DNA of 64,000 nt, taken from positions 124,001-188,000 of the forward strand of contig NZ_BAUX01000010.1 in NCBI RefSeq assembly GCF_002897035.1. The letters run 5' to 3'. The notes beneath the pieces are model-generated. The model did not search any database. It had not been told where the DNA came from and saw only the letters and a list, made by a program, of their open reading frames with translations. Both the position numbers and the translations under genes were made by a program. Of the stretch, positions 11,425 to 52,197 are shown piece by piece. Position 1 is the stretch's first letter, and each line of letters opens with the position of its first letter. The stretch is from Methylopila sp. Yamaguchi (GTDB lineage: Bacteria > Pseudomonadota > Alphaproteobacteria > Rhizobiales > Methylopilaceae).

Positions 11425-12354
11425 CTACTCCGCGGCCTGGGGCAAGAACCTCGGACCGCGCTCGGCGAGGAAGGCGCACATGGCCTCGGCAGGCGGAGTC
11501 AGGCGCTTGCCGGTGCGGCGGACGACGTACCACTGCCGGATGATCGGCAATCCCGCCACATCCAGCCGCGCAATCCGCCCGTCCGCGAGCTCCGCCGCGA
11601 CCGTGTGCGCGGAGATGAAGGCCAGACCCAGCCCCGCGATCACCGCCTGCTTTATGGTCTCGTTCGAGCCGATCTCCATTCCGATCTTCGGCTTCACCCC
11701 TTCGGCCTCAAACAGGCGCTCCATTAGCCCCCGCGTACCAGAACCCGGCTCCCGCATCAGGAAGGTCTGACCGGTCAATGCCGTTGGCTGCAGCCCGGCC
11801 CGGCCGACGAGAGGATGGTCCGGCGGCGCGATCACGATGTGGGGGTGATCGCCGATCACCGTGCGAACGACGTCGAGATCCTCTGGCGGACGCCCCATGA
11901 TCGCGACGTCGACGGCGTCGGCTCGCAGGAGATCGAGCACGTCAGCGCGGTTGCCGACGGAGAGCGTTACGTCCACGCCGGGATGGGCGCGGCCGAAGGC
12001 CCCGAGCGCCATCGGCGCGAAGTACTTTGCGGTCGACACGATCGCCACCGACACGCGGCCGCCCGCCAGCCCCTTCATCGATTCGATCGCGGCCATGCAG
12101 TCGTTGATCGCGCCTTCGATCCGCGAAACGGCGGCGACAACCTCGCGGCCGGCGTCCGTCGGGCGGAACCGGTCGCCGCTGCGGTCCAGCAGCGGCACGT
12201 CGAGCGACGCTTCAAGAAGTTGCACCTGCATGGTGACGGCCGGCGGGGTGACGTTCAGCTTCCGCGCCGCCGCGCTCACGGATCCGCTCTCCGCGACCGC
12301 GGCGAGGGCCCGAAGCTGCTTCAAGGTCAGAGCGCGGATCAGGTTTTCAGACAT
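11425..12354 (-). CDS. cbbR: LysR-type transcriptional regulator, CbbR-like
   Basis: The product has 309 residues with an N-terminal winged helix-turn-helix (SGSVSAAARKLNVTPPAVTM, about residues 23-42) and a periplasmic-binding-like effector domain. It is transcribed divergently from cbbF-cbbP across a 136-base gap, the standard placement of CbbR, which activates Calvin-cycle operons in response to metabolites such as RuBP, ATP or NADPH. The segment GGRVSVAIVSTAKYFAP matches CbbR proteins. Function is assigned from family and position. It converges on folK across 16 bases. Confidence 0.88.
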   Translation of the reverse strand: MSENLIRALTLKQLRALAAVAESGSVSAAARKLNVTPPAVTMQVQLLEASLDVPLLDRSGDRFRPTDAGREVVAAVSRIEGAINDCMAAIESMKGLAGGRVSVAIVSTAKYFAPMALGAFGRAHPGVDVTLSVGNRADVLDLLRADAVDVAIMGRPPEDLDVVRTVIGDHPHIVIAPPDHPLVGRAGLQPTALTGQTFLMREPGSGTRGLMERLFEAEGVKPKIGMEIGSNETIKQAVIAGLGLAFISAHTVAAELADGRIARLDVAGLPIIRQWYVVRRTGKRLTPPAEAMCAFLAERGPRFLPQAAE

Positions 12355-12490
12355 GCTGAAGGCGACATTTAGTTTGTTCGCCTTTTCTGAGCAATGCGCT
12401 AGACGATCTGCTGCCGCACGACGCCTGTCTCATGGACGTGGGAACGGGCATCATGCGAGAAAGACGCATCAGCCGGAGCGGAAGACGCCT
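12355..12490. promoter_or_regulatory. cbbR-cbbF divergent control region
   Basis: This 136-base gap separates the divergent starts of cbbR and cbbF. The part next to cbbR is notably AT-rich for this genome (ATTTAGTTTGTTCGCCTTTT) and is the likely promoter and CbbR-binding zone. I could not find a clean TNA-N7-TNA pair, so the binding site is inferred from position. A purine-rich GGAGCGGAAG lies upstream of the cbbF GTG. Confidence 0.5.
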
Positions 12491-13513
12491 GTGACCGAAC
12501 GCACGACCCTCGACGCCTATCTCAACGCCTGGGCCGGCGCGGACGCCACGCGTGCGGCGGTGTCTGAAACGATTCGCGCCCTGATGGGCGCCTGCACGAC
12601 GATTGCGGACATCGTCGGTCGCGGCGCGCTCGAAGGCGCAATGGGGGCCGCTACCGAAGCGACGAACGCCGGCGGCGATTCGCAGAAAGCTCTCGATCTT
12701 CGCACCCATGACATCGTCGTCGAGGCGCTCAAGGACGCCCCGGTGGCCCGCATCGGCTCCGAAGAAGCGGACGACGAGGTCGTGTTCGACGACGCGCGCC
12801 CGCTTGTGGTCGCGACCGATCCGCTCGACGGCTCGTCCAACATCGAGACCAACGTGTCGATCGGCACGCTGTTCGGAATTCTGCCCAACGCGGGCGAGGC
12901 GTCCTTCCTGCAGCCCGGCTCTAAGCAGCTGGCGGCGGGCTTCGTGGTCTACGGCCCGGCCACGGTGCTGGTGCTGACGGTCGGCGCCGGTACGCAGGTC
13001 TTTACGCTGGAAAGGGAGAGCGGCGACTACGTTCTCACGGGCGCCGACGTCGCTATCCCGCGGGAGACTAAGGAGTACGCCATCAACGCCTCGAACCAGC
13101 GGCACTGGGACGCGGCGATGCAGGGCTACGTCATGGACTGCCTCGCCGGCGCCGAGGGGCCGCGTGAGAAGAACTTCAACATGCGCTGGGTTGGCTCGCT
13201 GGTCGCGGACGTGTTCCGCATCCTGGTGCGCGGCGGCGTCTACCTCTACCCGGGCGACGAGCGCAGCGGCTACGGCCAGGGTCGGCTTCGGCTGGTCTAC
13301 GAGTGCAACCCGATCGCCTTCGTCTGCGAACAGGCTGGCGGCGCGGCGACCACGGGCACCGAGCGCGTACTCGACGTGATCCCCGCATCGCTCCACGTTC
13401 GCTCGCCGCTGGTGGTCGGCTCGGCCGAAGAGGTCGAGCGCGTCACGCAGTACTACGCGGAGCCGCCGCGCCGCTCGCCGCTGTTCGCGAAGCGCGGTCT
13501 GTTCCTGGCCTGA
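12491..13513 (+). CDS. cbbF: class I fructose-1,6-bisphosphatase (Calvin cycle)
   Basis: The product has 340 residues. Class I FBPase motifs are clear: the acidic metal site GSEEADDEVVF, DPLDGSSNIETNVSIG, and the phosphate and active-site segment YPGDERSGYGQGRLRLVYECNP. It hydrolyses fructose-1,6-bisphosphate to fructose-6-phosphate during RuBP regeneration and gluconeogenesis. The start is a GTG at 12491 chosen by homology (TERTTLDAYL) and the purine-rich sequence before it. It is first in the operon, 23 bases ahead of cbbP and divergent from cbbR. Confidence 0.94.
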   Translation: MTERTTLDAYLNAWAGADATRAAVSETIRALMGACTTIADIVGRGALEGAMGAATEATNAGGDSQKALDLRTHDIVVEALKDAPVARIGSEEADDEVVFDDARPLVVATDPLDGSSNIETNVSIGTLFGILPNAGEASFLQPGSKQLAAGFVVYGPATVLVLTVGAGTQVFTLERESGDYVLTGADVAIPRETKEYAINASNQRHWDAAMQGYVMDCLAGAEGPREKNFNMRWVGSLVADVFRILVRGGVYLYPGDERSGYGQGRLRLVYECNPIAFVCEQAGGAATTGTERVLDVIPASLHVRSPLVVGSAEEVERVTQYYAEPPRRSPLFAKRGLFLA

Positions 13514-48765: not shown

Positions 48766-51700
48766 TCAGGCATGGCCGCGCAGCGCAAAGGTCGCTCCTG
48801 CCGACGCAACGGCGCCGATCCGCGCGAGCGCGGCGAGCGTCGCCTCGATCCGCGGCGTCGCGCGCCGCCCCTCCCGGAAGGCGTCGGCCAGCGAGCCCAC
48901 GTCGATCGGCTCCCTCGCCTCGAGCAGCGCGAAGATGACGGCCGCCGTCTGGGCCATGTCCTCCTTCGGGAACGAGGGCTTGCGCGCGGCGAGCGCGGCT
49001 AGCGGAGCCTCGGTCTGACCGGCGCGGTCGTCCGCCGCGGCCCGGCCCCGGGCGAAGCGCTGCGCCTGATAGGCGGGCCTCAGCCAGCGCACCGCGCCCG
49101 TCGCTTCCTCCGCGCGACGTTCGAGGTTCAGCGCCGCAAGCCGCGCCACGACCTCCTACGCCGGGAGATCCGCCGGCCAGCCGTACGCGCCGGCGACCTC
49201 AAGGTCGAGGCGGTCGTGCAGCTCTTTCAGGATCAAGACGAGGCCCTCGTCGAAGACGCGACGCTCCGCGGGCGTCAGATCGGACGGGGTCGCGCCGCCG
49301 CGCAGGCGCTCCAGCACGTTGTAGAGCCCGGTGAGGGTGAGCTTCGGCCGCTCGTCGAGGACGCGCTTGCGGTGCGCGTCGAGCTCTTCCGCGATCGCCG
49401 CGATCCGCGCGGCCTGGACCGGCGTGGGATGAGGGAACGGGAACGGGTCGAAGCAGCGGGATTTGGAATAACGGGGGCGATCCTCCAGAGTCGCGCCGGC
49501 GACGGAAGCCCAAGCCGCGTGAATCCGAGACGACAGCACACCGAGGTGGACGGCGCTGTCGGTTGCGACGGCAACGAGCATGTTGTCCGGCAAGACGCTT
49601 CCGTCGAGAAACTGGAAGACCCGATGCTTGGATGTCTCCACGGTGACCACATAGCGGGACAGTCCGACAAGCGCGTCCCGTAGATCGGGGCGAGGCTTTC
49701 CGAAGATCCACCACCGCGCGAGGTAGTCCGCCGCGTCCTTCGTCGGCGACATGGCGTGCTGCTTCGCCCGATCCACCTTCACGGTCGCGGCGAGATGCTG
49801 ATAGGCCTCCGGAAAGTCGCGACGCACGCGCTCCTCGCTGAACCCGTAGAGATCGAGCGCTCTCGCATCGCGAGGCCGCGCGGTCAGATCGCGTCCATTG
49901 CGGTAAGGCGCGATCCGCTCGGCGAGACCTGGTCTCCGGTCCACGCCGAGCGCCCTGACGTCCTGAGTCGATACGACGAAGCCCTGTCCGTGCAGCTTGA
50001 CGCCCGGGGACGAGAGCCCGCCGTTCGCCAGCAGCGCCTTCGCTGCCCCCACGTCCGCGCCGATCGTCAGGTCCGCGTTGATCCGGCCACGCCTCTCGGA
50101 CAGCTCGATCAGGGGCGCGTCGGTGGCGAGGCCCTCCTCCCGCACGACCTCCCGCAGGGCGCCCTCCTTCAAGCCGGCCTCGGCCACCGTCATGGCGATG
50201 CGCACCGCGGCGCTGTCCCTCGCCGCCTTGGTCCAGGGATGGTCCGGTATCGCCATCACGATCGAGATTGGCGCCCGGCCGGCCATCCGGCGTTCGAGCG
50301 TGCGGCGCTGGAGCACCTGGCTGATCGAGTTCGTGGTGACGAAGCCGAAGCGCCGCAGTGGCGAGTCCTTGGCGGCGAGGATCCCAGCCGCTCTGTCCCA
50401 CCAATGCATTACGAGATCGGCGCTCTCGTTGATCCCCGTGTTTGCGGCCCACAGCGCCTCGGCGTAGTCCGCCCCCAGCCGCGCGCGCAGGTCCTTGCCG
50501 CCGATGAAAGGCGGGTTGCCGACGATGAATTCGGCGTCCGGCCAAGCCGGGAGGCGCGGATTGAGGTAGCGGGTGCGCTCCCTGCCTCGATCGCCGACGG
50601 GCCGGCCCGCGGCGTCGCGCAGCAATTCCTCCTCCGCCTCCAGCACGGCGTCCATCACCCGGATGTTGCGGAAGGCCTTCAGGATCGGCTCGTTCGGCGC
50701 GCCGCCTCGCGTCCGAGCGTGCCACTGCAAATAGCCGATCCAGAGCGCAAGTTCGGCGATCGCCGCGGCGCGGGGATTCTTCTCAAGTCCTAGCAATTGG
50801 TGCGGGTCGACCGTGTGACCTTCCAGGCCGGAGAGGGCCTCCTGCCCGCCGAGGTCGGCCAGCGCCTCCAGCACCTAGCCCTCGAGCCGCTTCATCAGCT
50901 CGAGGGTCACGTAGAGGAAGTTGCCGGTGCCGCAGGCCGGGTCGAGCACGCGCGTGGCGCAGAGGCGCGCATGGAAGCCCCGTACCGTCTTCAGCGCCTG
51001 CGCTCCGCGTCCCTCTTCTCGCTGGCGTTCGGCGGTGGCGAGAGCTGTCGCCCAGTCTGCGCGTAGCGGCTCCATCACAGTCGCGACCACAAGCCGCTCG
51101 ACATAAGCGCGCGGAGTGTAATGCGCGCCAAGCGCGCTCCGCTCGTCCGGGTCAAGCGCCTTCTCCAGCAGCGCGCCGAAGATCGCGGGCTCGACCTCGC
51201 GCCAGTCGTAGGAGGCAGCCGCCCGGAGCTCCGCGATCTCGGTCTTGTCGAGCGGCAGCGCCGAGCAGTCCCGGAAGAAAGCTCCGTTGAAGCGCGGCAC
51301 CTGCGCTTTTAGGCCGAAGGCGTAGCCGCCCTTGTCCATGGCCTCCCAAAGCTGGCCGACCACAGGCTGGAATCGCGCCGGCGCCGCCTCGCATTCAGCG
51401 AGCAGCGCGCTGAAGCCGCCGCGCTCGATCAACCCCACGTCCTGCGCGAACATCGTGAACAGCATGCGCATCAGGAACCGCGCGACCTCCTCGGTCGCAT
51501 GGCCTTTCGCCTCCAGACGACGCGACACCTCGGCGAGCCGAATCGCGATCTCGCGGGTGACCCGAGAGGCGTGCAGCGCGGGATCGAGCGCGAGCGGGTC
51601 GTTCCACACCTTGACCAGCCGCTCGCGAACCTCGGAACGGCGCAGGTCCTCGAGATAGATCCGGTAGCCCTGGCGGTCTGGAAACTGGTCGTACGCTTTG

Positions 51701-52197
51701 CCGTCCTTGCGGAAGTTCGCGTAAAGCTCAAGGCAGTGGCCGACGTCGCAGACGACGACGAACGGCGGCGGCTCATGGCCTTCCGGCAGCAGGCGCACGT
51801 AATGCTCGGCCTGGTTGCGGGCGTTCATCATCAGCACGTCCCAGGCCTTGTCGGCGCCGCGCCGTCCGCGCGTTACGGGCTCAGGGCCGGCCGTGGCGCC
51901 GAGCGGAGCCTTCGCCGCTCCGGGAAGACGCGACTGCTTCGCCTCCAGCACGAACCTTGATCGCCGATAGAGGTCGATCCGGCGCCGGGAGACGGCGCCG
52001 TCCCGCCCGATCTCCTTCACCACGCGCTCCAGGACGTAATCGTTCTCTTCCGTCGCCGCCGACGCCGGGTCGGGCCGGGCGACGCCCAGCGCGTCCGTCA
52101 ACTCGCTCAGAAACAACGCGTAGTTCGCCCGCTCCTGTCCGCCCACCCTTCCCTGCCAGCGCGCGATGAAACGCTCGACCGCCTGTTCCACCGCCAT
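48766..52197 (-). pseudogene. MmeI-like single-chain restriction-modification enzyme, interrupted by two in-frame amber codons
   Basis: Read through, this is one 1143-codon frame. Residues about 75-87 hold a PD-(D/E)XK nuclease motif, Asp75-x9-Glu85-x-Lys87, spaced as in MmeI. Adenine-methyltransferase motif I DPACGTGNF lies at about 419-427 and motif IV NPPF at 561-564, followed by a target-recognition region. Codon 441 (50875-50877) and codon 1014 (49156-49158) are TAG; everything else is in frame and ends in TGA. The first stop falls between motifs I and IV, so no single fragment has the whole catalytic core. A GTG follows each stop within one to three codons, so reinitiation to separate chains cannot be excluded. 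There is no partner specificity or nuclease gene nearby. Confidence 0.85.

What the first reader, a model, noticed from the sequence alone, without database searches (positions are those of the whole stretch)
48766..52197. One restriction-modification gene carries two in-frame amber codons and is otherwise intact
A single frame of 1143 codons matches a full-length MmeI-like enzyme, yet codons 441 (50875-50877) and 1014 (49156-49158) are TAG. No frameshift is needed to join the three parts. From memory of the family, Glu is usual at or next to both positions, so each could be a GAG-to-TAG change. TAG is the normal stop of several other genes here (cbbY, fhuF, the cupin, ABC and BatD-like genes), so a reassigned codon is unlikely. 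Remarkably, both stops are followed within three codons by GTG, and purine-rich sequences (GAGGG before the first, AGGAGG spanning the second) sit just upstream of those GTGs. The gene may be freshly inactivated, or split into chains that reassemble.
Basis: partly seen in the sequence, partly recalled or inferred. Interest (0 to 1): 0.7.

Follow-up and report, generated by a model that had tools for sequence, protein, structure and literature searches.

The report
Recently broken MmeI-like restriction gene
A methylotrophic bacterium related to Methylopila carries a DNA restriction-modification gene that two early stop codons appear to have switched off fairly recently, an ordinary kind of defence-gene loss.

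Summary
One minus-strand frame at 48766-52197 reads as a full-length MmeI-like (Type IIL) enzyme of 1143 codons, interrupted only by TAG at codons 441 and 1014. The best explanation is recent inactivation, not recoding or a split enzyme. Sister genomes carry the gene intact, two of them at the same locus. TAG works as a normal stop here: RF1 is present, TAG ends 18 of 120 coding-like frames on the contig, and no CUA-reading tRNA appears in an incomplete tRNA list. The GTG after each stop already exists in the intact sister gene. Substitutions on this lineage still look constrained; at most about 3-12% of the branch was unconstrained. TAG is 70-76% of the nonsense changes expected in this GC-rich gene, so two TAGs are no anomaly. 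Loss recurs: another genome of the genus has one TAG (codon 230) and a third has a frame change. DNA alone cannot exclude readthrough, reinitiation or a sequence error; I give each a few percent.

The parts
48766..52197 (-). MmeI-like Type IIG/IIL restriction-modification gene, 1143 codons plus TGA, interrupted by two in-frame TAG codons
   Evidence: PADLOC REase_MTase_IIG model over residues 5-1137, TAG read as Glu
50878..52197 (-). Piece 1, codons 1-440: MmeI_N (residues 6-230), helical spacer (236-308) and methyltransferase start including motif I (DPACGTGNF, residues 419-427)
50875..50877 (-). First in-frame TAG, codon 441; Glu in 9 of 10 other aligned homologues
49159..50874 (-). Piece 2, codons 442-1013: rest of the methyltransferase with NPPF (residues 561-564), target recognition domain and start of the C-terminal part; begins with GTG but lacks motif I
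49156..49158 (-). Second in-frame TAG, codon 1014, in the C-terminal part; Glu in 6 of 10 other aligned homologues, Ala in the two nearest sisters
48766..49155 (-). Piece 3, codons 1015-1143 plus terminal TGA; the listed open frame starts at a GTG at 49149

Best explanation
This is an MmeI-like single-chain restriction-modification gene that was recently inactivated by two nonsense substitutions to TAG. Translation ends at codon 441 and leaves an N-terminal fragment with the nuclease and spacer. It lacks the methyltransferase catalytic motif and the target recognition domain, so neither cutting nor methylation should occur. Cutting and methylation reside in one chain and share one recognition domain, so a truncation removes both at once and does not leave an unprotected host; that would make loss easy to tolerate. 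Shown: the stops, the intact relatives, RF1 and the use of TAG at gene ends, and a constrained substitution pattern on the lineage. Inferred: absence of activity, the ancestral codons, and the harmlessness of the loss. Unknown: which stop came first.
For: TAG codons confirmed in an otherwise uninterrupted frame. Of the 13 genomes of the genus, 8 have an intact full-length copy; G010 and G007 carry it between the same neighbours. TAG is a working stop: 18 of 120 coding-like frames on the contig end in TAG (one of them piece 2 of this gene), and in 4 of the 120 pairs a G000 TAG stands within three codons of where G010 has TGA or TAA. RF1 is present. No CTA anticodon among the 46 tRNA matches (the list is incomplete, see full report). 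Among 113 coding-like frames of G010 compared with G000 DNA, this gene is the only one with a G000 stop that has third-position-biased change on both sides. On the G000 branch, codons 716-904 left out, there are 19 nonsynonymous and 88 synonymous changes, against 39 and 108 on the two intact sister branches (Fisher p 0.13). TAG is 70-76% of expected nonsense in this gene. Independent breakages occur in relatives.
Against: Two stops with no indel and no rise in nonsynonymous change is slightly tidy for decay; with the sisters' own ratio as background the bound on unconstrained time is zero. A gene still translated by readthrough would leave the same pattern. The branch counts rest on G010 and G007 being sisters, while a whole-gene FastTree groups G000 with G010. 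No second strain of this species, no reads, no RNA and no methylation data were available.
Confidence: 0.9

Rival explanations
1. The protein is still made, by readthrough of TAG or by reinitiation at the GTG codons after each stop, giving full-length protein or chains that reassemble.
For: GTG lies 1 and 3 codons after the stops, with 4-of-6 Shine-Dalgarno matches at 3-10 bases; the substitution pattern shows no relaxation.
Against: No CUA-reading tRNA among the tRNAs found here or in G012, both lists incomplete; RF1 is present. GAGGG and GTG at stop 1, and the GTG at stop 2, are already there in the intact sister, so they are not adaptations to the stops. The AGGAGG at stop 2, which the two nearest sisters lack, ends only two bases before the GTG, too close for good initiation (recalled rule). 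Piece 2 lacks motif I.
Confidence: 0.04
2. One or both TAG codons are sequencing or assembly errors and the gene is intact.
For: Only one assembly of 39 contigs was available and no reads could be examined; the substitution pattern looks like that of an intact gene.
Against: Both errors would have to be substitutions producing TAG in one gene, while no other of the 113 compared frames shows a convincing internal stop in G000. Relatives show that such breakage occurs, unless those are errors too.
Confidence: 0.05
3. TAG is recoded or suppressed as Glu in this genus, because another genome of the genus (G012) also has TAG at a position of the same gene where relatives have Glu.
For: All three stops in two genomes are TAG where Glu is common in relatives.
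Against: TAG is 70-76% of expected nonsense changes in this gene, so three of three has a chance of about 0.35-0.43. GAG-to-TAG is the first or second commonest route in the three models tried. No CUA-reading tRNA was found in either genome, in incomplete lists. TAG stands in for TGA or TAA at gene ends.
Confidence: 0.01

Closest known systems
MmeI family (Type IIL restriction-modification enzymes); solved structure 5HR4
   Same: Same domain order: N-terminal nuclease, helical spacer, gamma-class N6-adenine methyltransferase, target recognition domain, C-terminal part. D75...E85-x-K87 here has the spacing of the catalytic D70...E80-x-K82 of MmeI (passages of PMC4833311).
   Different: 1143 codons against 919 residues; here interrupted by two TAG codons. 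The PDB profile match covers residues 164-845 of MmeI, not its nuclease domain.
PADLOC REase_MTase_IIG model PDLC03627
   Same: Matches residues 5-1137 of 1143 with 1443.5 bits.
   Different: The window copy is interrupted; 102 of 112 loci tested gave one uninterrupted match.
Helicobacter pylori Type IIG genes JHP1272 / HP1353-HP1354
   Same: Single-chain enzymes with similarity to MmeI, in which premature stops affect activity or specificity (passages of PMC3936762).
   Different: There homopolymer repeats lead to the premature stops (that such repeats switch reversibly is recalled). Here the breaks are nonsense substitutions in one frame, and no single-base run longer than three lies within ten bases of either stop.

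Membership tests
MmeI family (Type IIL) | MmeI-type N-terminal, helical spacer, methyltransferase and recognition domains in one reading frame | tested here: met
   All four Pfam MmeI domains above their curated cut-offs, with TAG read as Glu
MmeI family (Type IIL) | Gamma-class methyltransferase motifs I (DPACG.G.F) and IV (NPPF) | tested here: met
   Residues 419-427 and 561-564, invariant or nearly so among 10 aligned copies including this one
MmeI family (Type IIL) | Uninterrupted coding frame giving one chain | tested here: not met
   TAG at codons 441 and 1014; a member by descent, interrupted as a gene
MmeI family (Type IIL) | Cuts DNA and methylates one strand of its site | not testable with these tools
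   No biochemical or methylome data
Amber-recoded gene | A tRNA that reads UAG | tested here: inconclusive
   No CTA anticodon among 46 tRNA matches, but the list also lacks tRNA-Ile(GAT), so it is incomplete
Amber-recoded gene | TAG no longer used as a stop, RF1 lost | tested here: not met
   RF1 found; TAG ends 18 of 120 coding-like frames, one of them piece 2 of this gene
Split, reinitiated enzyme | New start sites beside the stops, absent from intact relatives | tested here: not met
   GAG GGC and GTG at stop 1 and the GTG at stop 2 are present in intact G010. The AGGAGG at stop 2 is absent from G010 and G007 but present in intact G005 (GAG GAG GTC)

The most novel reading that the evidence does not exclude
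The pieces are all translated, by coupled reinitiation or leaky readthrough, and a low dose of active enzyme is kept. The stops would then act as a dimmer that tunes restriction, and the single TAG at the nuclease-spacer border in G012 would be a parallel case.
Probability: 0.03. Interest if true: 0.6.

Novelty: new member of a known kind. Interest (0 to 1): 0.12.

Why it matters
It shows a defence gene caught soon after loss, with intact copies in sister genomes at the same locus as a clean comparison. Single-chain Type IIL systems should be easy to lose without self-damage, and three of the thirteen genomes of the genus examined carry a broken copy. Beyond that it is ordinary genome decay.

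Tried and rejected
Recoding of TAG was tested with RF1, terminal-stop, codon-expectation and tRNA checks and judged very unlikely. The tRNA check is the weakest: neither list holds tRNA-Ile(GAT) or tRNA-Ala(TGC), though G012 is a single contig, and a search with a recalled tRNA-Ile pattern found only CAT-anticodon tRNAs. The lists are therefore incomplete for a reason I do not know. A shared genus-wide amber mechanism was considered because G012 also has a TAG, and set aside on the same grounds.

My first branch count used G007 as outgroup. One search showed that in 14 of 16 60-codon windows outside codons 721-900, and in both flanks, G010 and G007 are the closest pair. The whole-gene FastTree groups G000 with G010 (support 0.955), which I put down to a divergent recognition domain in G007. 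I redid the count with G004, G005 and G006 as outgroups and codons 716-904 and the two TAG codons left out. That count sets aside 44 changes on the stem of G010 and G007 (33 synonymous, 11 nonsynonymous) and 31 unresolved ones (20 and 11). The spectrum labelled 'observed 4-fold' was polarised under the earlier tree; the flat and ts:tv 3 spectra do not depend on it and agree on the share of TAG.

In the reverse comparison (120 coding-like frames of G000 against G010 DNA), 10 frames meet a stop in G010; in 4 of them the change is third-position-biased on both sides of the stop. One is the frame at window 11861-13513, where the stop lies upstream of the FBPase domain in a part that runs antisense to the minus-strand frame 11425-12354. 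The other three are short frames of 100-131 codons with TGG-to-TGA, which I did not check by homology. So broken genes other than this one may exist in the sister.

The first translation script read minus-strand loci on the wrong strand and was discarded; one search replaces it. An earlier census had a looser gene filter and was replaced. One search used 112 of the 129 loci fetched; the 17 weak or partial matches L013-L024 and L026-L030 were left out. Literature, search listings only: MmeI with type IIL and stop codon (9 papers), MmeI family with pseudogene or premature stop (15 of 752 listed), MmeI family with NmeAIII, inactivated Type IIG (10 of 13 listed), Methylopila with restriction-modification (none). 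I saw no report of this gene in those listings. Passages only were seen of PMC3936762 and PMC4833311. The founding MmeI-family paper is not held.

Full report
Observation. The minus-strand frame 52197-48766 translates into 1143 residues followed by TGA, with TAG at codons 441 and 1014 and no frameshift. A whole-genome search with the frame read through finds it as one full-length match with '2 TAG'. Pfam recognises MmeI N-terminal, helical spacer, methyltransferase and target recognition domains, each above its curated cut-off, and PADLOC gives a Type IIG restriction-methyltransferase match over residues 5-1137. The only solved relative found at E up to 1e-5 is MmeI itself, 5HR4.

Where it lies. 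The window is part of a 4.42 Mb genome in 39 contigs. The blocks around the gene are collinear with G010 at about 88-92% DNA identity. G010 and G007 keep the same neighbours on both sides, so the gene looks vertically inherited in this group. G012 has its copy in other surroundings: across 19 kb the segments that match this contig outside the 172-177 kb stretch with the gene are at most 83 residues long, the longest ones at about 25-34% identity.

Relatives. In the 13 genomes of the genus returned, counting this one, there are 8 intact full-length copies, this one with two TAG, G012 with one TAG, G008 in pieces with a frame change, G002 with only weak or fragmentary matches and G003 with none. 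Across 397 genomes of the order, 45 have a match at E up to 1e-100; in-frame stops are reported only for this genome and G012. Of 112 loci tested together, which include some duplicates of the same genome, 102 gave one uninterrupted match, some of them partial. The other ten: L001 and L010 with TAG; L119 and L158 with TAA (L158 also with a frame change); L176, L183 and the two loci L012 and L025 of G008 with a frame change; L156 in two same-frame pieces without a stop; and L190 with only a stop at position 1140, which I take as its normal end.

Ancestral residues. Position 441 is Glu in 9 of 10 other aligned copies, Asp in one; both nearest sisters have GAG. Position 1014 is Glu in 6 of 10. 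The two nearest sisters have GCG GAC GCG where G000 has TAG GAG GTC and G005 has GAG GAG GTC. In 14 of 16 60-codon windows outside codons 721-900, and in both flanks, G010 and G007 are closer to each other than either is to G000, so the sisters' version is probably derived and the ancestral codon in this lineage was probably GAG. This second inference is less secure than the first.

TAG is a stop here. Of 120 coding-like frames on the contig, 88 end in TGA, 18 in TAG and 14 in TAA; one of the 18 is piece 2 of this gene. In 4 of the 120 pairs a G000 TAG matches TGA or TAA within three codons of the same place in G010, and in 12 both have TAG. The frames were chosen by their substitution pattern, and a few may not be genes. 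A class I release factor with the RF1 signature RVPATE is present (signature recalled). The 46 tRNA matches gave 49 ARAGORN calls, some of them probably repeats from overlapping stretches, none with anticodon CTA; one weak match (L112) gave no call. The 44 matches in G012 gave 50 ARAGORN calls, also none with CTA. Neither list holds tRNA-Ile(GAT) or tRNA-Ala(TGC), and a recalled tRNA-Ile pattern did not find the former, so the lists are incomplete and this part of the test is not conclusive.

Neighbouring genes as a control. Of 113 coding-like frames of G010 compared with G000 DNA, 9 meet a stop in G000; only in this gene is the change third-position-biased on both sides of the stop, as in real coding sequence. 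In the reverse direction 4 of 120 frames show that pattern with a stop in G010: one is explained by an antisense overlap, three short ones were not resolved (see tried and rejected).

Age. With codons 716-904 left out, the G000 branch has 88 synonymous and 19 nonsynonymous changes; the intact sisters together have 108 and 39. The ratio is not raised after the stops: 36 and 10 before stop 1, 43 and 7 between, 9 and 2 after stop 2. For assumed background ratios of 0.05-0.25 the unconstrained share of the branch is at most about 3-12%; with the sisters' ratio of 0.36 the bound is zero. A wholly neutral branch would have brought about 7-11 nonsense changes, so a share of some percent gives about one or fewer expected extra stops after the first. 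Two is not remarkable, and neither is their both being TAG, since TAG is 70-76% of expected nonsense in three mutation models.

Start signals. At stop 1 the intact sister has GAG GGC GAG GTG, and at stop 2 it also has the GTG. The AGGAGG at stop 2 is absent from the two nearest sisters but present in the intact G005 sequence; it ends two bases before the GTG. Of 65 GAG codons examined, 9 have a comparable start and Shine-Dalgarno match within three codons.

Mechanism. In MmeI the nuclease is residues 1-155, spacer 156-300, methyltransferase 301-620, recognition domain 621-825 and C-terminal bundle 826-919 (passages of PMC4833311). Stop 1 falls after motif I and before NPPF in the methyltransferase; stop 2 lies beyond the region that aligns with MmeI, in the C-terminal part. 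Termination at stop 1 removes methylation and recognition together. Type IIL systems share one C-terminal recognition domain for both activities (passages of PMC3936762), so loss should not expose the host to its own nuclease (inference). The genome has no match to the N6_Mtase family, which 13 of 14 control genomes have; I did not survey other defence systems.

Verdict. A recently inactivated member of a known family, one of several breakages among its relatives. Interest is low.

Noticed in passing
window 49486-50052 (codons 716-904) against G007 (L003): The target recognition domain of the G007 copy is only 53-63% identical in DNA to this one over codons 721-900, while the full 60-codon windows outside are 82-96% identical: it looks as if a recognition domain was swapped, which would change specificity.
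   Followed up: partly
window about 2388-2496 (tRNA gene at contig 126388-126474): Collinearity with G010 breaks right at this tRNA: about 11.5 kb extra lies in G010 there, so the tRNA may be an integration site.
   Followed up: no
contig G000:C10 about 59-61 kb (outside the window): G010 has about 37 kb between blocks that are about 2 kb apart in this genome.
   Followed up: no
window 11861-13513, + strand: One open frame of 550 codons joins a stretch that runs antisense to the minus-strand frame 11425-12354 to the FBPase gene; in G010 a TAG ends the antisense part, so a gene caller could overextend FBPase here.
   Followed up: partly
L010 (G012), codon 230 of the MmeI-like gene: A single TAG lies at the border between the nuclease and the helical spacer; relatives L008 and L009 have GAG there. 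The next start codon is nine codons on.
   Followed up: partly
genomes G000 and G012: Both carry a tRNA-SeC gene (anticodon TCA), which suggests selenocysteine use.
   Followed up: no
tRNA matches of G000 and G012: tRNA-Ile(GAT) and tRNA-Ala(TGC) are missing from both lists, although G012 is one contig; perhaps the ribosomal operons are not searchable in these copies.
   Followed up: partly
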